Assembly: GCA_958295975.1 (NCBI GenBank)
Contig: OY282446.1
Location: 2,085,289-2,149,288 of the forward strand
Direction: 5' to 3'
Origin: Tepidiformaceae bacterium
GTDB lineage: Bacteria > Chloroflexota > Dehalococcoidia > Tepidiformales > Tepidiformaceae
DNA length: 64,000 nucleotides
Part shown: positions 1 through 34,767 of the stretch, piece after piece
Layout: every line of letters starts with the position of its first letter
How positions within the stretch are numbered: the stretch's first letter is position 1
Made by a program: the position numbers and the translations under genes
The notes under the pieces: model-generated
The model's database searches: none
Seen by the model: only the letters and a program-made list of their open reading frames with translations
What the model was told of the DNA's origin: nothing

Positions 1-324
1 GAGCGCCGCGAGGAGATGCTGAAGCCCCTCGGCGAGAACGCCGCCGCCATGCGCAACGTGTTCGAGAGCGAGCGCGGGGCGGCGGGCATCCGCCAGGACC
101 TGCTGACGAACAAGACGCTGGACCGGCTGCGCGCCATCGCCGCCGGAGAGGTCGCCGATGATGGCGAAGCCGCCGATGACGCCGAGGCCGCGTCCGAACC
201 CGTGGTGGCAGCCGACGCCGCCGATGACGCCGACGCTGGCGAGGCCGAACCCGCATCCGAACCCGCGGCAGACGCGGACGCCGCCCCCGAGCCCGAAGCA
301 TCGAACGAGGAGCACGCCGAGTGA
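1..324 (+). CDS. tig: trigger factor, C-terminal part (5' end outside window)
   Basis: This is the 3' end of an ORF that is open from base 1. The first residues ([20 protein letters not shown], then a [14 protein letters not shown] segment) resemble the end of the trigger factor C-terminal chaperone domain. Trigger factor is a ribosome-bound folding chaperone. The last ~55 residues are an unusual low-complexity tail of Ala, Asp, Glu and Pro, very acidic, beyond the normal end of the family. The TGA stop overlaps the GTG start of clpP (GTGA), and clpX follows, so this is the classical tig-clpP-clpX order. That context carries much of the identification because only about 100 residues are visible. 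Confidence 0.8.
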
Positions 325-947
325 GCCAGCCCAGCGCCATCGTCCCCATGGTGGTCGAGACGGGGCCGCGTTCGGAGCGCGCCCTCGACATCTTCTCGCT
401 GCTCCTGAAGGAGCGCATCATCTTCCTGGGCACGCCCATCGACGACCAGGTGGCGAACCTCATCGTGGCCCAGCTGCTCTTCCTGCAGCGCGAGGACCCG
501 GAGCGCGACATCAGCCTCTACATCCACTCCCCCGGCGGCGTCATCCCGGCGGGGCTGGCCATCTACGACACGATGCAGCTGATCGAGCCCGCCGTCTCCA
601 CCATCGCCGTGGGGCAGACGGCCTCCATGGCCTCGGTGCTGCTGGCGGCGGGCGCGAAGGGCAAGCGCTACGCCCTGCCCAACGCCACCGTGCACATGCA
701 CCAGGCGCTGGGCGGCGCGCGCGGGCAGGCGCGCGACATCGAGATCGCCGCCCGCGAAATCCTTCGCAACAACGAGATCATCCGCGACATCATCTCCGCC
801 CATACCGGCCAGGAAGTGGCCAGGGTGCAGGAGGACTTCGACCGCGACTTCTACCTCGACGCCGGGGGCGCACGCGACTACGGCTTCGTGGACGAGCTGC
901 TGGAGCAGCAGCAGGGCGCCACGCCGGGCGCCGGCGCGGACGCCTGA
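321..947 (+). CDS. clpP: ATP-dependent Clp protease proteolytic subunit ClpP
   Basis: Self-compartmentalised cytosolic serine protease that degrades substrates unfolded by ClpX or another Clp ATPase. The 208-aa length is normal. The catalytic triad can be placed as Ser102 (GQTASMAS), His127 (VHMHQALGG) and probably Asp176 (FDRDFYLD). The GTG start at 321 overlaps the tig stop, and clpX begins one base after the stop, so the three genes form one operon with coupled translation. The C-terminal ~15 residues are a Gln/Gly/Ala extension with no obvious role. The N-terminus keeps the VPMVVE-type axial-loop region. Confidence 0.97.
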
Positions 948-948
948 C

Positions 949-2289
<1,341 letters not shown>

Positions 2290-2353
2290 GCGCGCGTCCG
2301 CCGTTGACGGTGCGCGCGTCCGCCGGTACAACCCCATTGGCGCCACCGCGCCC

Positions 2354-2398
2354 GGAGCCTGTGTGAAGCTCACCCCCCCCCCCCCCCCCTTATGGTAA
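2354..2398 (+). promoter_or_regulatory. SD plus GTG start leading into the poly-C tract (candidate translational switch)
   Basis: GGAG at 2354-2357 lies 5 nt before a GTG at 2363. From that GTG the reading is V-K-L-T-P-P-P-P-P-L-W and then TAA at 2396. With 17 Cs this reading frame is out of phase with the secreted Ig-like protein that follows. With 18 or 15 Cs it would run straight into that protein's signal peptide. The annotated ATG at 2392 has only the C tract upstream and no ribosome-binding site. The arrangement is seen in the sequence; the switching role is inference. Confidence 0.5.
2373..2389. repeat. homopolymer run of 17 C
   Basis: Seventeen consecutive cytosines lie between a well-placed SD/GTG and the first ATG of a secreted protein gene. 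Long homopolymers are known hot spots for slipped-strand mispairing in phase-variable genes. They are also a common site of sequencing and assembly length errors, so the exact count should be treated with caution. Confidence 0.9.
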
Positions 2399-4923
2399 GT
2401 TATGCGCTGAGACTGGCCGCGCTCGCGCTGCTGGGAGGGGCGCTCATCGCGGGGAGCGGCGGCGCCGCCGCCCAGACGGCGACGCCCTGCACCCTCAGCG
2501 GCCCCGTCGTCAGCCTTCAGACGTACGTGGCCGGCACGGCCATCGCCGCCACCGGCGTCAACCCCGGGATCACCTTCCCCACGGCCACGGTCACCACGGG
2601 CTGCACGGCGCCCATCGTCTACACCCTCAGGCCCATCGCCACCGCGGGTTCCACCGGCATGAACGTGCCCGGCCTCACCTTCAACGGGAGCGCCACGCCG
2701 CGCCCCACGCTCACGGGCATGCCCACGGCCCCGACGGGCTTCTCCGATACGCACGCGGTCGCCTACACCGCTACGGGCGCGAACGGCTCGACCGCCACCG
2801 CCTACTGGTACATCACCATCGAGGCCGACAGCACGCCATCGTTCGCGGAAACCTCGTACGAGAAAACCTTCTACGTGGACCGCTACGAACTGTGGCGCAC
2901 GCCGCTGGTCACGGGCGGCAACCATCGCTCGAACCGCCGCCAGTACTCGATCCTGGACCCTGTCTCGGGAATGACAGCAACCCTGCCAACCGGCCTGAAG
3001 TTCTGGCCGAACGGCGAGCAACTGAGCGCCATGTCCCCCTCCGCGAACTCGGGCACGCCCCAGATGTCGACGTTCGCGGCGGTGGCGGAGGCGGACTACA
3101 CCCTCAAATTCACGGACGCCGACGGCGACTTCGACACCACGACGCTCAAGCTCACGGTGGCGGAACGCACCAGTCCGGACTTCTTCGAGGACTCCGTCAG
3201 GGTTCACTGGATACTCAACGGGAAGGCCCGGAACTCCATCGCCAGCCTCAATCAGGTTGTCCTGCAGGGCGCGGGCGGACCGGGCACGACCTACGCGCTC
3301 AGCGGCACGCTGCCGGCCGGGCTCTCCTGGACCGCGGCCACGCGCGTCATCGCCGGTCCCCCCACCGAGGCCGGAACCTTCCCGCTCACGCTCACGGCCA
3401 CGGACAGCAACGGCGTGACCGATACGCAGTCCGTCACCATCATCGTGTCGCCGACGACCGCCCCCTGGTTCAGGGGCCTCACGCGGCGCGCGACCGACTG
3501 CACGACGGTCAGGATCGGCTGGGCGGCCCCGCAGGGGGGCAACCCGGCGGAAACCGGCTGGATGAGCCCGACGATCACCGGCTACCGCATCGAGGGCAAA
3601 CAGCGCGGCGTCGACGGCGGCTGGGGTCTCGTCGCGGAGGTCTCGGGCTCCACGACCAGCTACACCCACTCCGGCCTGCCGCCCGGCTCGCAGTGGTCCT
3701 ACCGCATCCGGGCGCTCACGGCGGGCGGCGTGAACCCGTGGACCCTCGAGATCCTCGCGTCCACGAACTACAACGACAGCAGACCCTGGCGCGCGCTGGA
3801 GGTGGGCATGGTGCTCCCCCGCTACTTCCGGGGACCTAACGGAGGCCAGATCTCGCGCTACCAGTGGTACCGCTCGCCGGATCAGGCGACGCCGGACTGG
3901 ACGCCCATCGCGGGCGCCACCGAGGGGTTCTACGAGGTCACCGACGCCGACGTTGGGCAGCTCTTCGCGATCGAATATCCGACCGAAGAGTTCTACATCT
4001 CGTGGTCCTCGATACGCCTTCTGGTGGGGGCGCCAACTCCACTGACGGGCTCCTACGATCCGGTCATCCCGGACGACTCCCCGTCCTTCGCCGCGACCGG
4101 CGAGCGCATCGCGGAGCCGCCCGAAACCGTCAACATCCAGCTGCCCTCGGCCACGGGCGGCAGCGGAACCGTCGTCTACACGCTCAGCCCCGACCTGCCC
4201 GACGGCCTCGCCTTCGACGCGGACGACCTGACCATCACGGGCGCGCCCCCGGCGGACTGGACGGGCGACTACACCCTCACCGCCCGCGACGCCGACTGCG
4301 ACGTGGGCGCCTACGCGCTCGCCATCGGCCCCGAACCGGTCGTGGAGGATCCGGAACCGGAACCGAAGCGGTTCGTCCCGCTGGAGCCGTACGGCCTCGT
4401 CACCATCACCGTGGCCGAGGAGGGGGACGCGCCGGAGGACGCCGAGTACGGCATCCGCCTCGGCTGCGGCTTCTCCACGTTCACGCCCGCCTTGGCCGCT
4501 GGCGAGAGCTACGACGCCTGGGTGGTGGCGGGCAGCCTCTGCGCGCTGACGATGACCGACCGGCAGGGCGCGTGGGACGTGCGGGGCGAGTTCCGCGATC
4601 GCCTCATCCGGCAGGAGCGCAGCGCCGTCACCCTCACCGCCCGCTTCCCCACGGCCGGGCAGCCGGACGAACAGCTCGAGGGGCGGCTGGTGGCGGGCCT
4701 GACCGTCGTGCGCTGGCGGGGCGCGGCGCGGCCCATCGCGGACGCCGTGGCGGACCTCACGCTGCGCGTGACCGCCGTCTACCGGTGGGAGGCGGCCACG
4801 CAGACGTGGCTTTCCTGGTTCCCCGACGCGGAGGACCTCGGCGTGAACACGCTGGATACGTTCGAGCCGGGCGGCATCTACTTCATCTTCGCCGAAGAGC
4901 GGGAGGACGCCGCCGCGCCCTAG
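2392..4923 (+). CDS. secreted multidomain protein with putative Ig-like and fibronectin III domains
   Basis: The 843-aa product has a signal peptide (VSYALRLAALALLGGALIAG, cleavage near residue 28). A cadherin/Ig-like module with TYALSGTLPAGLSW and GPPTEAGTFPLTLTATDSNG signatures (putative Ig, He_PIG type) lies at about 283-353. An FN3-like domain (ITGYRIEGKQRG, YTHSGLPPGSQWSYRIRA) covers about 368-450. A second He_PIG-type module (LPDGLAFDADDLTITGAP) lies at about 577-647. The C-terminal region is unassigned and ends at GGIYFIFAEERED. No sorting signal or membrane anchor is visible. It is probably a cell-surface or extracellular adhesion-type protein, but function cannot be deduced. The ATG lacks an SD, and an upstream GTG with an SD is out of frame by one base in the C tract. 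Its TAG stop shares bases with the stop of the convergent gene. Confidence 0.8.
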   Translation: MVSYALRLAALALLGGALIAGSGGAAAQTATPCTLSGPVVSLQTYVAGTAIAATGVNPGITFPTATVTTGCTAPIVYTLRPIATAGSTGMNVPGLTFNGSATPRPTLTGMPTAPTGFSDTHAVAYTATGANGSTATAYWYITIEADSTPSFAETSYEKTFYVDRYELWRTPLVTGGNHRSNRRQYSILDPVSGMTATLPTGLKFWPNGEQLSAMSPSANSGTPQMSTFAAVAEADYTLKFTDADGDFDTTTLKLTVAERTSPDFFEDSVRVHWILNGKARNSIASLNQVVLQGAGGPGTTYALSGTLPAGLSWTAATRVIAGPPTEAGTFPLTLTATDSNGVTDTQSVTIIVSPTTAPWFRGLTRRATDCTTVRIGWAAPQGGNPAETGWMSPTITGYRIEGKQRGVDGGWGLVAEVSGSTTSYTHSGLPPGSQWSYRIRALTAGGVNPWTLEILASTNYNDSRPWRALEVGMVLPRYFRGPNGGQISRYQWYRSPDQATPDWTPIAGATEGFYEVTDADVGQLFAIEYPTEEFYISWSSIRLLVGAPTPLTGSYDPVIPDDSPSFAATGERIAEPPETVNIQLPSATGGSGTVVYTLSPDLPDGLAFDADDLTITGAPPADWTGDYTLTARDADCDVGAYALAIGPEPVVEDPEPEPKRFVPLEPYGLVTITVAEEGDAPEDAEYGIRLGCGFSTFTPALAAGESYDAWVVAGSLCALTMTDRQGAWDVRGEFRDRLIRQERSAVTLTARFPTAGQPDEQLEGRLVAGLTVVRWRGAARPIADAVADLTLRVTAVYRWEAATQTWLSWFPDAEDLGVNTLDTFEPGGIYFIFAEEREDAAAP

Positions 4924-6170
4924 GAGTGCGAGCGCGCGTCCGGCTCGTCGGCGGTCACGCCGTCGGCGTGGAGGCGGGCGATCTCGTCGTCGTCCAGCCC
5001 CAGCAGCTCGCGGAAGACGTAGCGGTTATGCTCGGCGAAGCCGGGCGCGGGCAGGCGCGCGTGGCCGGGCGTGCGGGGCAGGCGCCAGGGTGGCGTCTCC
5101 ACATCCCACGTGCCCGCGTCGGGATGCGTCTGCGGCGACCACGCCCCCCGCGCCCGCAGCTGGGGGTCGCTCATCACCTCGGGGATGGTGAGCACGGCCC
5201 CGGCGGGCACGCCCGCGCGCTGCAGCAGGTGCATGGCCTCGTAGTGGCCGATGCGCGTGGTCCAGCCCTCGACGACGGGGTCGAGTGCGCGTTCGTTCGC
5301 CTTGCGCGCCGCCATCGTGGCGAAACGCTCGTCATCGGCCAGTTCCGGCTGGCCGATGACGCCGCAGAGGGCGGCGAACTGGGCGTCGTCCTCGCAGGCG
5401 ATGGCGATCCAGCGGTCCTCGCCCGCGCTGCGGTAGACGCCGTGGGGGGCGAACCGCGGATGCGTGTTGCCCGCGGGCGGGCGCAGCTGGCCGTTCATGC
5501 CGTAGTCGACCACGAATTCGCCCACGAAGTTGGTCAGGTTCTCGCGCTGGGCGAGGTCGATGAAGACGGCCTCGCCGGTGCGCTCGCGCTGGCGCAGGCC
5601 CAGCGCCACGGCCCCGGGCACGGCCACGCCCGAGGCCGGATCGCCGTAGCTGAAGCCCGTCTTCAGCGGCTCCCCGCCCTCGTAGCCGGAGACGGAGACG
5701 AGCCCCGCCAGCTGCTCCACGTTCGTGCCGTAGGTGACGTAACCCGATTCGGGGCCGGTCTTGCCGTGGCCGGGCATGGAGAGGTAGACGATGCGCGGGC
5801 TGGCGGCGCGCACCGCCTCGAAGCCGAGCCCGAGGCCGTCCATCACGTTGGCGCGGTAGTTCTCCACGAGCACGTCGCTGCGGGCACAGAGGCGCAGGAG
5901 CAGGTCGCGGCCCTCCTCCCGGCGCAGGTCGAGGGCGGCGGCGTACTTGTTGCGGTTGTTGTGGTTGAAGTAGGCGGCGCGGTTGTACCAGCGCGGGGCC
6001 GTGCGCGGGATGCCGCCCAGCCCGCGCAGCAGGTCCCACTGGCGCGGCCCCTCGATCTTGATGACCTCGGCCCCGTAGTCCCCCAGCAGGCGCGTGCCCA
6101 GCGGCCCCGCCCACACCATCGTCAGGTCCACCACGCGAATGCCCGCGAGGGGCGCGGGCGCGACGCTCAC
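4920..6170 (-). CDS. CaiB/BaiF-type family III CoA-transferase
   Basis: Family III CoA-transferases move CoA between acyl groups through an aspartyl-CoA anhydride. Seen here are the N-terminal PLAGIRVVDLTMVWAGPLGTRL motif region, the conserved GAEVIKIE strand, the NRNK segment (NHNNRNKYAAALDL) and the probable catalytic Asp in SYGDPASGV. I chose the GTG at 6170 (416 aa), which overlaps the stop of the 155-aa gene upstream (GTGA), rather than an ATG 42 bases further upstream. It is the last gene of a coupled trio with 6167-6634 and 6631-7815. The substrate is unknown. The TAG stop is shared with the convergent Ig-like gene through a CTAG. Confidence 0.9.
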   Translation of the reverse strand: MSVAPAPLAGIRVVDLTMVWAGPLGTRLLGDYGAEVIKIEGPRQWDLLRGLGGIPRTAPRWYNRAAYFNHNNRNKYAAALDLRREEGRDLLLRLCARSDVLVENYRANVMDGLGLGFEAVRAASPRIVYLSMPGHGKTGPESGYVTYGTNVEQLAGLVSVSGYEGGEPLKTGFSYGDPASGVAVPGAVALGLRQRERTGEAVFIDLAQRENLTNFVGEFVVDYGMNGQLRPPAGNTHPRFAPHGVYRSAGEDRWIAIACEDDAQFAALCGVIGQPELADDERFATMAARKANERALDPVVEGWTTRIGHYEAMHLLQRAGVPAGAVLTIPEVMSDPQLRARGAWSPQTHPDAGTWDVETPPWRLPRTPGHARLPAPGFAEHNRYVFRELLGLDDDEIARLHADGVTADEPDARSHS

Positions 6171-6634
6171 GGCGGCCCCGCCAGCCGCGCGAGGCTGGGC
6201 GGCCCGCGCCATTCGCCGCCGTCGTCGAGCCGCACGCGCAGCGTCGCGCCCGTGGCCGTGACCGTTCCGCGCACGCGCGCCCCCCGCGGCGGGAAGGCCA
6301 CGCGCTCCGGAGCCTCGACGCGCGCGCCCGCGGGGAAGGCCGCGGCGGCGGTGCGCTCCAGCGCCTCCGTGCGCCTGCCGATGGCGCGCGCCAGCGCCTG
6401 CAGTTCGGCGAAATCGGGCGTGCGCTCCACCAGCCGCCGCGCCTCGCGCGCGCTCGCGGGGGCGGCGGCGGGGGCGACCGCGGCGGGCGCGGGGATGGCC
6501 TCCTCGCCGCCCGCCGTCATTGCCCGCGCCACGAAGCGCTTCGCGCGCCGCGCCACCACGGCGGAGAGCTCATGCAGCAGGACGGGGTCGTCGCAGCCCT
6601 CGAAGAAGGCCACGGCCCGCGCCAGCGCGCTCAC
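6167..6634 (-). CDS. hypothetical 155-aa protein coupled to two CoA-transferases
   Basis: A GTG start at 6634 overlaps the stop of the upstream CoA-transferase, and its own TGA overlaps the GTG of the next CoA-transferase. The N-terminus (ALARAVAFFEGCDDPVLLHE) is helical. An Ala/Pro linker (about 46-62) is followed by a second helical part with RTPDFAELQALARAIGRRTE. The C-terminus (about 110-150) is Gly/Arg-rich and looks like a small beta domain (VRGTVTATGATLRVRLDDGG). No known family is recognised. Double translational coupling suggests a partner or accessory to one of the CoA-transferases. The ORF is well supported by codon-3 GC bias and coupling. Confidence 0.65.
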   Translation of the reverse strand: MSALARAVAFFEGCDDPVLLHELSAVVARRAKRFVARAMTAGGEEAIPAPAAVAPAAAPASAREARRLVERTPDFAELQALARAIGRRTEALERTAAAAFPAGARVEAPERVAFPPRGARVRGTVTATGATLRVRLDDGGEWRGPPSLARLAGPP

Positions 6635-30997: not shown

Positions 30998-31903
30998 ATG
31001 GTCGCACCGATGCGGGGGAAGCGCGCGGGCCTGCTGGCGCTGGCGGCGGCGCTCGCCACGATGCTGGGGCTGGGCGTCACGCTCGGCGTGACGCAGCGCG
31101 GGGACGCGACGGGCTGCGCGGAGGCCGCGCTCGGCGGTTCGCGCGCGGAACACGCGGAACTGGCGGCGGACTGCGACGCGCTGCTGGCCTCGCGCGCGGC
31201 GCTGGCGGGCGGCCGGGCGCTGAACTGGAGCGCTGGCGCGGCGCTCGCGGAGTGGGACGGCGTGACCGTCTCCGGCGAGCCGCCGCGCGTGGTCGGGCTG
31301 GACCTGCGCGCCGGCGGCCTGAGGGGCGTGCTCCCGACGCAGCTGGGCAGCCTGACGGCGCTCACCGACCTCGCCCTGTCTGGCGGCAACGCGTTCGCGG
31401 GCTGCATCCCCGGCCCGTTGTGGGCGGCGGAAACGCACGATCTCGCTGCTCTGGGGCTGACGACGTGTACGGACGGCACGATTGGGGACGAGGAAACGAT
31501 CAAATTTGGCACAGCTATTGGGCCGGGCACCTACAAGGTTTCCCTGGATGCCTGGAAACTTGAGGTTGGCGAAGGCAAGAACTTTATCTTCAGCGTGCCA
31601 GAAGGGCTGCGAATTGAATTGAGGTATGTGGGTCACAGTTCAAGTTCATGCTGGGGGGAGTGCCCTCCTGTTCATGCAATGATCCATGGTGAAAATGGCG
31701 AATTCGTCGTTTGCGTGGAGGTGGAAACGGCTGAGGAATGCGGGCGTGGACACAAAAGCAGGGCAGCGGAACTTGGAGAGCCTACTGATGAATATGGACG
31801 CCCTCTACGCACTACCACTGCTGATGAGGAAGTTCGCATCGAAATGCTGGAACCGATGATTGACCAGATGGTAGCATCCGCGCACATCGAGGATGCGCGA
31901 TGA
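30998..31903 (+). CDS. secreted LRR-type protein, short paralogue
   Basis: 301 aa; AGGAGG lies 4 bases ahead of the ATG. Signal peptide ([20 protein letters not shown]). The cap region [20 protein letters not shown], the LNWS...W.GV segment and two plant-type leucine-rich repeats ([20 protein letters not shown]) match the large LRR protein at 47215. The C-terminal half, from about residue 160, is different, AT-rich at the DNA level, and has Cys pairs ([21 protein letters not shown]). It ends [13 protein letters not shown]; the DQMVAS is shared with the 47215 protein. Secreted, function unknown. Confidence 0.75.
31860..31879 (+). repeat. 20-base element shared with 49181-49200 (copy 1)
   Basis: TTGACCAGATGGTAGCATCC here and the same with one change (T for C) at 49181-49200. 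Both are near the 3' end of an LRR gene, encode DQMVAS and lie in AT-rich context whose neighbouring bases do not align. It may be a conserved C-terminal peptide motif or a recombination site. Confidence 0.5.
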
Positions 31904-32061
31904 TGGGGATGGGGCACGGCCACACCTTTCCCCCACCCCACCTCGACAGGCGCGCCCGAGCCGTAGCCGCCCGTGTGCGCGGAGCGGGACCGCGCGTTGC
32001 AAGCCCCGCGACTTGCTGCTAATCTTCTGCTAACCAAAACAGAATTAGCAGGAGATTGGCC
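31904..32061. other. intergenic region holding the fic promoter/operator; 5' half empty
   Basis: Between the LRR stop and the fic ATG. The first ~90 bases are GC-rich with a C/A-rich tract and show nothing recognisable. The last ~65 bases carry the promoter and TGCTAA repeats described separately. Confidence 0.6.
31997..32051 (+). promoter_or_regulatory. fic promoter with TGCTAA operator-like triad
   Basis: TTGCAA (31997-32002), 17 bases, then TAATCT (32020-32025): a good sigma-70-like promoter. Overlaid are CTGCTAA at 32016-32022 and 32027-32033 and the inverted TTAGCAG at 32045-32051. The first copy covers the -10, and the third runs into the AGGAG ribosome-binding site. Copy 2 and copy 3 can form a 7-bp hairpin. 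Binding of a protein would block both transcription and translation. An exact mirror image lies after the gene. Confidence 0.6.
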
Positions 32062-33429
32062 ATGCGGATGCCCGTCCCCCCGCCTCCCCTGGATGAGCTG
32101 ATGCAACAGGCCATGTCCGGTGCGGGGGGCCTCCGCTCCATCGTTGGCGCCATGCGGCCGGTGGATGCGAGGGGCCGGTACCTGCACTGGGACGAGGTGC
32201 GCCACCGGACGCCGCCCGACGGGCTGACGCACGGGCAGTGGTGGCTGGGCATGGCGCTCAGCCGGATGGCCGCCGCGCGGCCCCTGCCGCTGACCAGCGT
32301 TGACGGCGCGCCCTTTCGCTTCTCCAACGTCGACCGGATTCAGGAGGTGGTGCACCGGATCGACCAGCAGGCGAGCGGCCAGATCCTGTCCGCCGCGCAG
32401 GTGATGAATCCGCGCTCGAGCGATCGCTACCTCGTCTCCTCGCTGGAGGAGGAGGCCATCACCTCGAGCCTGCTGGAGGGGGCGACGACCACGAGGCGCA
32501 TCGGCAAGGAGCTCCTGCGGAGCGGGCGCCGCCCCCTGGACCGGAGCGAGCGCATGATCCTCAACAACTTCACCGCCATGCGGGCGGCGCGGGAACTGGC
32601 CGGGAACGGCGGGCCGCTGACGCCCGACGCGGTGCTGGAGCTGCATCGCATCGTGACCGCCGACACGCTCGACGACGAGGCGGACGCCGGTCGCCTGCAG
32701 GAGCGCGACGACCTGCGCGTGTCCGTCACCTGGGAGCCGGCATGGGAGGGCGAGCTGGTCCTGCATGAGCCGCCGCCCGTCGCGGAACTGCCGGGGCGGC
32801 TGGCGAACCTCTGCCGCTTCGCCAACGAAGAGAACGGCAGGGGCTTCATCCATCCCGTGGTGCGCGCCATCGTGCTCCACTTCTGGATCGCCTACGACCA
32901 TCCCTTCGCGGACGGCAACGGTCGCGTGGCGCGGGCGCTGTTCTACTGGTCGATGCTGAGGGACGGATACTGGCTGGCCCAGTACCTCTCCATTTCCAGC
33001 ATCCTGCGGAAGGCGCCGGCGCGGTACGCGCGCTCCTACCTGCATGTGGAGACCGACAACAACGACATGACCTACTTCGTCATCCACCAGCTGCACGTGA
33101 TCGAGCGGGCCATCGAGGACCTGCGGGAGTACCTGGCCCGCAAGGTGAGCGAGATGCGGGAGGTCGAGTCGCTGCTCCACGGCAGCGCCCTGCTCAACCA
33201 CCGCCAGATCGTGGCCGTCAGCGACGCGCTGCGGGGCGCACGGCAGGAGCTCACCATCCGGGAGCACGCGCAGCGCCACCGGGTGGTCACCCAGTCGGCC
33301 CGCACGGACCTGATGGGGCTGGAGGCGCTGGGCCTGTTCAGCAAGCAGCGCGCGGGCAAGCCGTTCGTGTTCACGGCCCGGCGCGACCTCGCCGAACGGC
33401 TGCGAACGGTGGCCGCCCCCCGCGGCTGA
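32062..33429 (+). CDS. Fic-family AMP-transferase with winged-helix C-terminus
   Basis: 455 aa, ATG with AGGAG 7 bases ahead (the frame is open from a TTG six bases upstream). The Fic active-site motif H280-PFADGNGR-288 is complete. An inhibitory-helix motif S135-SLL-E139-G140 fits (S/T)xxxE(G/N), so this is a class II Fic protein that keeps itself inactive. The C-terminus (about 365-450, RQIVAVSDALRGARQELTIR, ALGLFSKQRAGKPFVFTARR) looks like a winged helix. Fic enzymes usually transfer AMP to target proteins. No separate antitoxin is seen. The gene lies between mirror-image TGCTAA triads, suggesting autoregulation or a mobile cassette. Confidence 0.9.
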   Translation: MRMPVPPPPLDELMQQAMSGAGGLRSIVGAMRPVDARGRYLHWDEVRHRTPPDGLTHGQWWLGMALSRMAAARPLPLTSVDGAPFRFSNVDRIQEVVHRIDQQASGQILSAAQVMNPRSSDRYLVSSLEEEAITSSLLEGATTTRRIGKELLRSGRRPLDRSERMILNNFTAMRAARELAGNGGPLTPDAVLELHRIVTADTLDDEADAGRLQERDDLRVSVTWEPAWEGELVLHEPPPVAELPGRLANLCRFANEENGRGFIHPVVRAIVLHFWIAYDHPFADGNGRVARALFYWSMLRDGYWLAQYLSISSILRKAPARYARSYLHVETDNNDMTYFVIHQLHVIERAIEDLREYLARKVSEMREVESLLHGSALLNHRQIVAVSDALRGARQELTIREHAQRHRVVTQSARTDLMGLEALGLFSKQRAGKPFVFTARRDLAERLRTVAAPRG

Positions 33430-33443
33430 CCCGCCGCATCTTT

Positions 33444-33479
33444 CTGCTAAATTGGCTTTGGTTAGCAGGAAGTTAGCAG
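33444..33479. repeat. mirror copy of the fic upstream TGCTAA triad
   Basis: CTGCTAA at 33444-33450, TTAGCAG at 33462-33468 and TTAGCAG at 33473-33479. Spacings of 18 and 11 bases reverse those of the upstream site (11 and 18), and the bases between also resemble the reverse complement (TAACCAAA). It lies 14 bases after the fic stop. It can fold as a 7-bp hairpin and might act as a terminator, a second operator or the other end of an inserted cassette. Confidence 0.7.
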
Positions 33480-33585
33480 AACCACGCCCGCGCCGTGGCC
33501 GTCCGCGCGCCGGAGCGGCGGGTTGGGTACGATGCGCGCACGGCTTCGCGCCCGCGCTCCCCGCGCGGCGCGGAAGGAGGGCCAG

Positions 33586-34767
33586 GTGCCAGGCGCGCTC
33601 GACGGAATCCGCATCCTCGATTTCACCCGCTACCAGCAGGGCCCCTTCGCCACGCTGCTGCTCTCCGACCTCGGCGCGGAGGTGATCAAGGTGGAGGAGC
33701 CGGGCCACGGCGACCTCGGCCGCAGCCTCGGCCTCCAGCCCGACGGCTTCTGCGCCTACTTCCAGTCGCTCAACCGCAACAAGCGCTCCCTCACGGTCGA
33801 CACGCGCACGCCCGAGGGCCGCGAGATCATCCTCCGGATGATCCCCGAGACGGACGTGGTGACGGACAACTTCCGCCCGGGCACGATGACGCGCTTCGGG
33901 CTGGACCACGAGGCGCTGAGCGCGGTCAACCCGCGCATCATCACCGCCAGCGCCACCGGCTTCGGGCCCAAAGGCCCGCAGGCGCGCGAGCCCTCGTTCG
34001 ACTCCATCGGCCAGGCCATGGGCGGCGTCATGGTGGCCCAGGGCGGCGGCCCCGGCGCCGTGCCCGTGCACGTCATCGGGGGCATGGCCGACCAGGTGGG
34101 GGCCATGATCTTCGCGCTCGGCGTCTGCGCCGCCATCGCCGCGCGCGAGCTGCACGGCGTGGGCCAGCACGTGGACACCTCCCTGCTCGGCTCCCAGCTG
34201 GCGCTGCAGGGGCTCGGCCTCACCGCCTTCCTGCGGCAGGGCGCGCAGCGCCCCACCGTGCCGCGCTGGAACGCGCTCTTCACCCACTACCGCTGCGGCG
34301 ACGGGCGCTACATCAGCCTCGGCCTGCTCGACCCCAAGTGGTGGCCCGCCTTCTGCGAGGCGCTGGGGCGCGCGGACCTGCCCGCCGACGAGCGCTTCGC
34401 CGAGCCCGCGGGCCGCGCCGCCAACCGCGACGCCCTCATCGCCGAGCTGGAGGCCGCCTTCGGCGAGAAGCCGTGCGACGAATGGATCGCCCTGCTCAAG
34501 GCCGCCAACCTGCCCTGCGGCCCCGTCAACGACTACGCGGGCGTGGCGCAAGAGCCGCAGGTCATCGCCAACGAGTACCTGACCACGCTGGATGACCCGG
34601 CGCTGGGCGAGATCGGCATCGTGGGCTCGCCCATCCACATGAGCGGAACGCCCTCCGGCCCGCGTTCGACGGCCCCGGACCTGGGCCAGCACACGGAGGA
34701 GATCCTGCTGGAGCTGGGCTACGGCTGGGACGACATCGAGCGGCTGAAGGACGCGAAGGTCGTCTGA
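33586..34767 (+). CDS. CaiB/BaiF-type family III CoA-transferase
   Basis: 393 aa from the GTG at 33586, which has GGAGG 5 bases upstream; an earlier in-frame start at 33523 lacks an SD. Motifs: LDGIRILDFTRYQQGPFAT, GAEVIKVEEPGHGD, LNRNKRSLTVDTRTPEG and the probable catalytic Asp in GGMADQVGA. It is isolated on the plus strand between fic and a convergent regulator gene. Substrate unknown. The TGA stop is half of the palindrome at 34765-34780. Confidence 0.92.
   Translation: MPGALDGIRILDFTRYQQGPFATLLLSDLGAEVIKVEEPGHGDLGRSLGLQPDGFCAYFQSLNRNKRSLTVDTRTPEGREIILRMIPETDVVTDNFRPGTMTRFGLDHEALSAVNPRIITASATGFGPKGPQAREPSFDSIGQAMGGVMVAQGGGPGAVPVHVIGGMADQVGAMIFALGVCAAIAARELHGVGQHVDTSLLGSQLALQGLGLTAFLRQGAQRPTVPRWNALFTHYRCGDGRYISLGLLDPKWWPAFCEALGRADLPADERFAEPAGRAANRDALIAELEAAFGEKPCDEWIALLKAANLPCGPVNDYAGVAQEPQVIANEYLTTLDDPALGEIGIVGSPIHMSGTPSGPRSTAPDLGQHTEEILLELGYGWDDIERLKDAKVV

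What the first reader, a model, noticed from the sequence alone, without database searches (positions are those of the whole stretch)
31997..33479. Fic gene between two TGCTAA triads in exact mirror arrangement
Upstream: CTGCTAA, 11 bases later CTGCTAA, 18 bases later TTAGCAG. Downstream: CTGCTAA, 18 later TTAGCAG, 11 later TTAGCAG, i.e. the reverse complement with identical spacing, and similar bases between. The upstream copy overlaps a good -10 box and the SD. The 11-base step is one helical turn, which suits a DNA-binding dimer; the Fic protein has a winged-helix-like C-terminus. Two readings are possible: autorepression with a DNA loop between the ends, or terminal inverted repeats of a movable fic unit.
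Basis: partly seen in the sequence, partly recalled or inferred. Interest (0 to 1): 0.72.

Follow-up and report, generated by a model that had tools for sequence, protein, structure and literature searches.

The report
Self-repressing Fic enzyme's paired operators
A bacterial AMP-transferring (Fic) enzyme most likely binds, through its own DNA-binding tail, a three-part DNA site in front of its gene and a second copy behind it; two amino acids of that tail predict the bases of the site across several bacterial phyla, so the function of this tail can now be tested directly.

Summary
CTGCTAA occurs six times in the window, all in the two triads, and the triad occurs nowhere else in the 2.4 Mb genome.

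The triads are the operator of the Fic protein itself. Across more than 130 homologs from several phyla, the same geometry (7-11-7-4-7) is the best of 416 spacings tested upstream of fic and is not enriched downstream as a rule, while the half-site sequence varies. That variation follows residues 410 and 411, the first two of the recognition helix of the C-terminal winged helix. Y410 goes with A at base 3; T, V, P, R, H or Q mostly with G. Q411 goes with C at base 4; A or G with T. The rule held in two held-out sets, and 16 of 17 residue changes on the tree fall on the same branch as the matching base change. The window's T410-Q411 predicts its TGCTAA, and two gammaproteobacterial T-Q proteins have the same site.

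Autorepression is therefore strongly supported; CccR of Yersinia is a proven precedent. The downstream copy is real and recurs in the closest clade. Its role (loop, roadblock or neighbour control) is unproven. The reading as terminal repeats of a movable unit is not supported.

The parts
32016..32051 (.). upstream operator triad: CTGCTAA-4-CTGCTAA-11-TTAGCAG; a degenerate fourth half-site TTGGCCA may follow at 32056-32062
   Evidence: geometry conserved upstream of homologs
32016..32022 (+). half-site 1
32027..32033 (+). half-site 2
32045..32051 (-). half-site 3, abutting the Shine-Dalgarno
31997..32025 (+). weak promoter candidate TTGCAA-17-TAATCT with extended TGC; its -10 overlaps half-site 1
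   Evidence: not found by the strict scan
32062..33429 (+). fic gene, 455 aa: Fic domain plus C-terminal winged helix
   Evidence: PF02661 64.7 bits; AlphaFold2 pLDDT 89.7
32464..32481 (+). inhibitory motif SSLLEG (residues 135-140), N-terminal to the Fic motif (class II)
   Evidence: translation; S135, E139 and G140 invariant in A3
32899..32934 (+). Fic motif HPFADGNGRVAR (residues 280-291)
   Evidence: translation; conserved
33199..33378 (+). C-terminal winged helix (residues 380-439)
   Evidence: secondary structure of the model
33289..33294 (+). residues T410 and Q411, the first two of the recognition helix (410-422), which covary with operator bases 3 and 4
33444..33479 (.). downstream operator triad, mirror image: CTGCTAA-11-TTAGCAG-4-TTAGCAG
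   Evidence: same arrangement in close homologs
33586..34767 (+). neighbouring CoA-transferase family III gene (GTG start), conserved in all 8 genus relatives, which lack this fic; synteny breaks just left of its promoter

Best explanation
The gene encodes a class II Fic AMP-transferase with a C-terminal winged helix. Through that winged helix the protein binds the triad over its own promoter and ribosome-binding site and represses itself. The half-site TGCTAA is read by the first residues of the recognition helix (T410 for base 3, Q411 for bases 4-5). The triad downstream is a second binding site for the same protein. In about half of the relatives with a clear operator the second site instead lies upstream, mostly 40-90 bp from the first. 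Shown by comparison: geometry, promoter overlap, covariation, identity of the two sites. Inferred: binding, repression, stoichiometry. The downstream site is most likely an auxiliary operator that strengthens repression by cooperativity or looping, or blocks transcription at the end of the gene; which of these is open.
For: Geometry: spacing 11/4 (the same geometry in shifted registers 7-15) ranks first of 416 spacings upstream of 89 homologs (15.7-15.9 against 13.33, sd 0.44) and is not enriched downstream. Triads of 15/18 or better: 87 of 142 upstream, 12 of 141 downstream. Covariation: all data, helix position 2 A/G versus Q/E/D by base 4 T or not = [[16,0],[3,66]], p=1e-14; position 1 Y or not by base 3 A or not = [[67,3],[3,13]], p=3e-10. 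Held-out sets alone give p=5e-5 and 1e-4. On a tree built without the winged helix, 6 of 6 and 10 of 11 residue changes fall on the same branch as the base change (shuffled maximum 3 and 6). T-Q proteins L186 and L187 carry GCT as the window does. Operators overlap the best promoter candidate in 52 of 59 loci against 29.8 expected. Residues 410-411 start the recognition helix in the model. Precedent: CccR, a class II Fic with a C-terminal HTH, represses its own promoter through inverted repeats (PMC9755527). Both-sided operators occur in L055, L056, L057, L059, L060 and L062, among the 10 nearest homologs.
Against: No binding or expression data exist for this protein. The window's own promoter match is weak. 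About 39% of homologs show no strong triad, and distant plasmid homologs (about 35% identity) show none. A few exceptions break the code: L094 has N410 with A, L190 has Q410 with A, L234 and L200 have T at base 4. The p-values on pooled sequences ignore relatedness; the tree count addresses that.
Confidence: 0.86

Rival explanations
1. The downstream triad is the operator of the next gene (CoA-transferase), so Fic controls itself and a neighbour.
For: The triad lies between fic and a codirectional gene, with a weak promoter candidate CTGACC-16-TAAATT overlapping it; TerC in L059/L062 and peptidase-like genes in L099/L118 are also codirectional.
Against: In L055 and L056 (and by ORF reading L057 and L060) the neighbour is convergent, so the downstream operator cannot sit at its promoter. 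The caiB promoter region shared with genus relatives (GTTGGGTACGATG) lies about 45 bp further on.
Confidence: 0.15
2. The two triads are anchors of a DNA loop of about 1.4 kb that tightens repression, as with auxiliary operators of lac or gal.
For: Same half-site on both sides. 43 of 87 loci have two separate operators upstream, so two sites per gene are usual.
Against: Spacing of paired operators shows only weak helical phasing (R 0.35 at period 10.0, 0.23 at 10.5), and related loci share spacings. Nothing tests a loop over the gene body.
Confidence: 0.3
3. The triads are terminal inverted repeats of a movable fic unit.
For: The fic is absent from genus relatives and sits at a synteny break. 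Homologs are often flanked by duplicated host sequence.
Against: Single copy in the genome; no transposase inside; no target duplication outside the triads. Most homologs have only the upstream operator. In loci with host duplications the operator is internal.
Confidence: 0.04
4. Another regulator, not Fic, binds the triads.
For: No binding assay has been done.
Against: Half-site bases track residues of the Fic protein's own recognition helix across phyla and genomic neighbourhoods.
Confidence: 0.04

Closest known systems
CccR (YPK_0951) of Yersinia pseudotuberculosis, PDB 7xux, PMC9755527
   Same: Class II Fic domain with C-terminal HTH; represses its own promoter through inverted repeats near -35/-10.
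   Different: Operator is AGATAATCAT-N26-ATGATAATCT, not a triad; lies by a type VI secretion locus; distant in sequence (phmmer E 0.002 to the structure).
CbFic2 (CBU_0822) of Coxiella burnetii, PDB 8cil, PMC10628234
   Same: Class II Fic with C-terminal winged helix; DNA binding stimulates the enzyme and dimerisation.
   Different: Only random DNA was tested, no operator known; 19% identity in the fold match.
SoFic, Fic anti-phage family (PDB 3eqx, 3zcn; PADLOC PDLC03963; PMC12249575)
   Same: Best defence-family match, 119 bits over residues 117-437; same domain order.
   Different: Far below the NCBIfam SoFic cut-off (31.5 against 550 bits). No report of a triad operator in the papers read here.
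Recognition codes of locally autoregulated repressors such as the LacI family (PMC2978694, abstract only)
   Same: The idea of reading residue-base pairs from genes next to their own operators.
   Different: Different protein family and fold; operator here is a triad of half-sites.

Membership tests
[quoted passage not shown]
   HPFADGNGRVAR at residues 280-291; 64.7 bits against a cut-off of 24
Fic/DOC AMP-transferases (PF02661) | AMP transfer activity | not testable with these tools
   needs an enzyme assay
Class II Fic proteins | inhibitory motif [S/T]xxxE[G/N] N-terminal to the Fic motif in the same chain | tested here: met
   SSLLEG, residues 135-140; S135, E139, G140 invariant in 42 homologs
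Autorepressing Fic-HTH proteins (CccR type) | C-terminal helix-turn-helix domain | tested here: met
   winged helix at residues 380-439 in the model
Autorepressing Fic-HTH proteins (CccR type) | inverted repeats over the own promoter | tested here: met
   triad at 32016-32051; promoter overlap across homologs
Autorepressing Fic-HTH proteins (CccR type) | CccR's box AGATAATCAT with 26-bp spacer | tested here: not met
   half-site CTGCTAA with gaps 4 and 11
Autorepressing Fic-HTH proteins (CccR type) | direct binding and repression | not testable with these tools
   only comparative evidence here
SoFic anti-phage defence | NCBIfam equivalog NF046030 cut-off | tested here: not met
   31.5 bits against 550, although PADLOC SoFic matches at 5e-35
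Transposable element with terminal inverted repeats | repeats at the ends of the moved unit, target duplication, transposase, more than one copy | tested here: not met
   single copy; no flanking duplication; operators internal in duplicated-flank loci; no transposase between the triads

The most novel reading that the evidence does not exclude
The operator-fic module belongs to a class of one-gene inserts that enter the ends of host genes by an undescribed route, duplicating 30-220 bp of target so that the host gene stays whole, and carry their own matched repressor-operator pair so that they are silent on arrival in any genome; the second operator behind the gene insulates the insert from its new neighbours.
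Probability: 0.15. Interest if true: 0.85.

Novelty: new variant of a known kind. Interest (0 to 1): 0.6.

Why it matters
Most bacterial Fic enzymes of this build carry a winged helix whose role is unknown. Here its DNA target is predicted from sequence, with a two-residue code tested on held-out genomes. That makes the function of the tail directly testable, gives a predictable orthogonal repressor-operator family, and suggests how a potentially toxic enzyme can be kept silent when it moves between very different bacteria.

Tried and rejected
A first genome pattern with a gap of 8-14 was wrong (the gap is 4) and found nothing. The viral scan with the single protein found no relative. Plasmid and phage-like homologs at about 35% identity show no triad, and serve as an outgroup. 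The simple empty-site test fails: genus relatives share caiB and everything to its right, but the left side is rearranged, so no clean insertion boundary exists. Helical phasing of paired operators as proof of looping was weak. Control of the downstream gene as a general role was set aside because some neighbours are convergent. Reading triads as transposon ends was rejected.

Full report
OBSERVATION. The start-to-start steps are 11 and 18 upstream, 18 and 11 downstream, so one triad is the reverse complement of the other in spacing. Shuffles give 1.28 copies per window and never six. In the whole 2.4 Mb genome the double heptamer occurs only at these two sites with up to two mismatches, so this is a local system and not a regulon. 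The fic start is ATG 32062, with GCAGGAG as SD abutting the third half-site. The promoter candidate is weak in the window.

THE PROTEIN. It is a 455-residue Fic protein (PF02661, 64.7 bits) with an intact Fic motif HPFADGNGRVAR and an N-terminal inhibitory motif SSLLEG, which makes it class II. AlphaFold2 gives a confident model (mean pLDDT 89.7, pTM 0.86) with a C-terminal winged helix at residues 380-439, whose recognition helix is 410-422. Nearest solved folds are Fic proteins of the same build, among them SoFic, CbFic2 and CccR. PADLOC places it near SoFic (119 bits), but it is far below the NCBIfam SoFic cut-off. No genome of its own genus carries it: the best match in genus or family is about 30% identical. 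The nearest homologs are 60-64% identical and lie in other Chloroflexota families and in Acidimicrobiia, so horizontal gain is likely (inference).

CONSERVED GEOMETRY. I scored every spacing of half-site, inverted half-site, half-site (416 combinations) upstream and downstream of 89 homologs, using only internal symmetry and no sequence. The window's spacing, with its register-shifted equivalents, comes first upstream by more than five standard deviations, and no spacing stands out downstream. Typical half-sites are xTACTAA; others are TATCAA, TACCAA, TGCTAA, TGTCAA, CTATCGG. About half of the loci with a clear operator (43 of 87) have two separate operators upstream, most 40-90 bp apart. Where a promoter-like sequence is present, the operator overlaps it in 52 of 59 loci against 29.8 expected by shifting; often the -10 TATACT is itself part of the half-site. 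This is the layout of an autorepressor.

RECOGNITION CODE. Half-site sequence follows the first two residues of the recognition helix. Residue 410 Y goes with A at base 3; T, V, P, R, H or Q mostly with G; N with C in one case; D with T in one. Residue 411 Q goes with CT at bases 4-5; A or G with TC; D or E with CC or CT. I then took two new sets, Gammaproteobacteria and the class of a Phycisphaerae genome, chose the best half-site model without reference to the protein, and compared. Held-out sets: position 2, [[6,0],[3,26]], p=5e-5; position 1, [[28,1],[1,5]], p=1e-4. All data: p=1e-14 and 3e-10. Among the held-out proteins the two with T-Q, as in the window, both carry TGCTAA (L186, L187). 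On a FastTree tree of the Fic part alone, all 6 changes at residue 411 and 10 of 11 at residue 410 coincide with the matching base change; shuffled labels reach at most 3 and 6. Repeated independent co-change is hard to explain unless this helix binds these bases.

THE DOWNSTREAM COPY. It carries the same half-site as the upstream one. A matching downstream triad is rare in the family (6 of 86 loci tested with own half-site, against 0.9 with permuted half-sites), but common in the nearest clade: L055, L056, L057, L059, L060 and L062 all have operator-like sequence on both sides (L055-L057 and L060 judged partly by eye). Some pairs are near-identical 37-55 bp copies. Next genes differ and some are convergent, so a general role at the neighbour's promoter is unlikely. 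An auxiliary operator (cooperativity, loop, or a block to transcription at the gene end) fits best; none is shown.

MOBILITY. The triads are not transposon ends. Yet the family does move: 20 of 133 fic loci have direct repeats of 30 bp or more across the gene against 1 of 130 control positions; about six of the 20 are the operators themselves, the rest are host sequence. Examples are 219 bp of the glmS 3' end at 97% identity (L208), the class I aldolase 3' end (L235, L241), the terminase 3' end (L236), and the hsdR 5' end in L065, L071, L077, L085 and L119 (host genes named by reading the translations, not by a family search). Operators lie within the inserted stretch. Single-crossover integration or homology-facilitated joining would explain this without a new mechanism. 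In the window itself no such repeat is left; the right flank is conserved in the genus and the left is rearranged.

KNOWN OR NEW. Autorepression by a class II Fic with a C-terminal HTH is proven for CccR (PMC9755527). DNA-stimulated activity is known for CbFic2 (PMC10628234). In the paper searches made here I found no report of the triad operator, the residue-base code, or the two-sided arrangement; the library holds only open-licence papers. I therefore file this as a new variant of a known kind.

LIMITS. All evidence is comparative. About 39% of homologs lack a strong triad in the 250 bp searched, the code has exceptions (L094, L190, L200, L234), and the number of subunits per triad is unknown.

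Noticed in passing
L208, L235, L241, L236, L065, L071, L077, L085, L119, L125, L133, L206, L212, L053, L057: Long direct repeats, mostly of host gene ends, flank the fic homolog (up to 219 bp at 97% identity in L208): 20 of 133 fic loci against 1 of 130 control positions, about six of the 20 being operator copies. Looks like insertion of a one-gene unit with target duplication.
   Followed up: partly
L065 positions 1-4542: Three copies of the hsdR 5' end in a row, separated by fic and by another solitary gene (AlbA-like by eye): successive single-gene inserts in front of hsdR.
   Followed up: no
L071, L077, L085, L119: The fic stop codon overlaps the hsdR start codon (ATGA), so fic and a type I restriction gene appear translationally coupled.
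   Followed up: no
L035, L036, L040, L041, L044: Downstream of fic in one Chloroflexota family lies a gene whose N-terminus resembles an Mrr-type restriction protein (by eye only).
   Followed up: no
window 30998-31903: Unknown protein with no Pfam match belongs to a family with 36 matches in this genome, far more than in genus relatives.
   Followed up: no
window 33480-33586: Synteny break: caiB and genes to its right are conserved in the genus, while the divergent gene left of caiB in relatives is absent here.
   Followed up: partly
L066 positions 5032-6297: A HipA-like toxin gene (by eye) follows fic and is enclosed with it by a 200-bp direct repeat.
   Followed up: no
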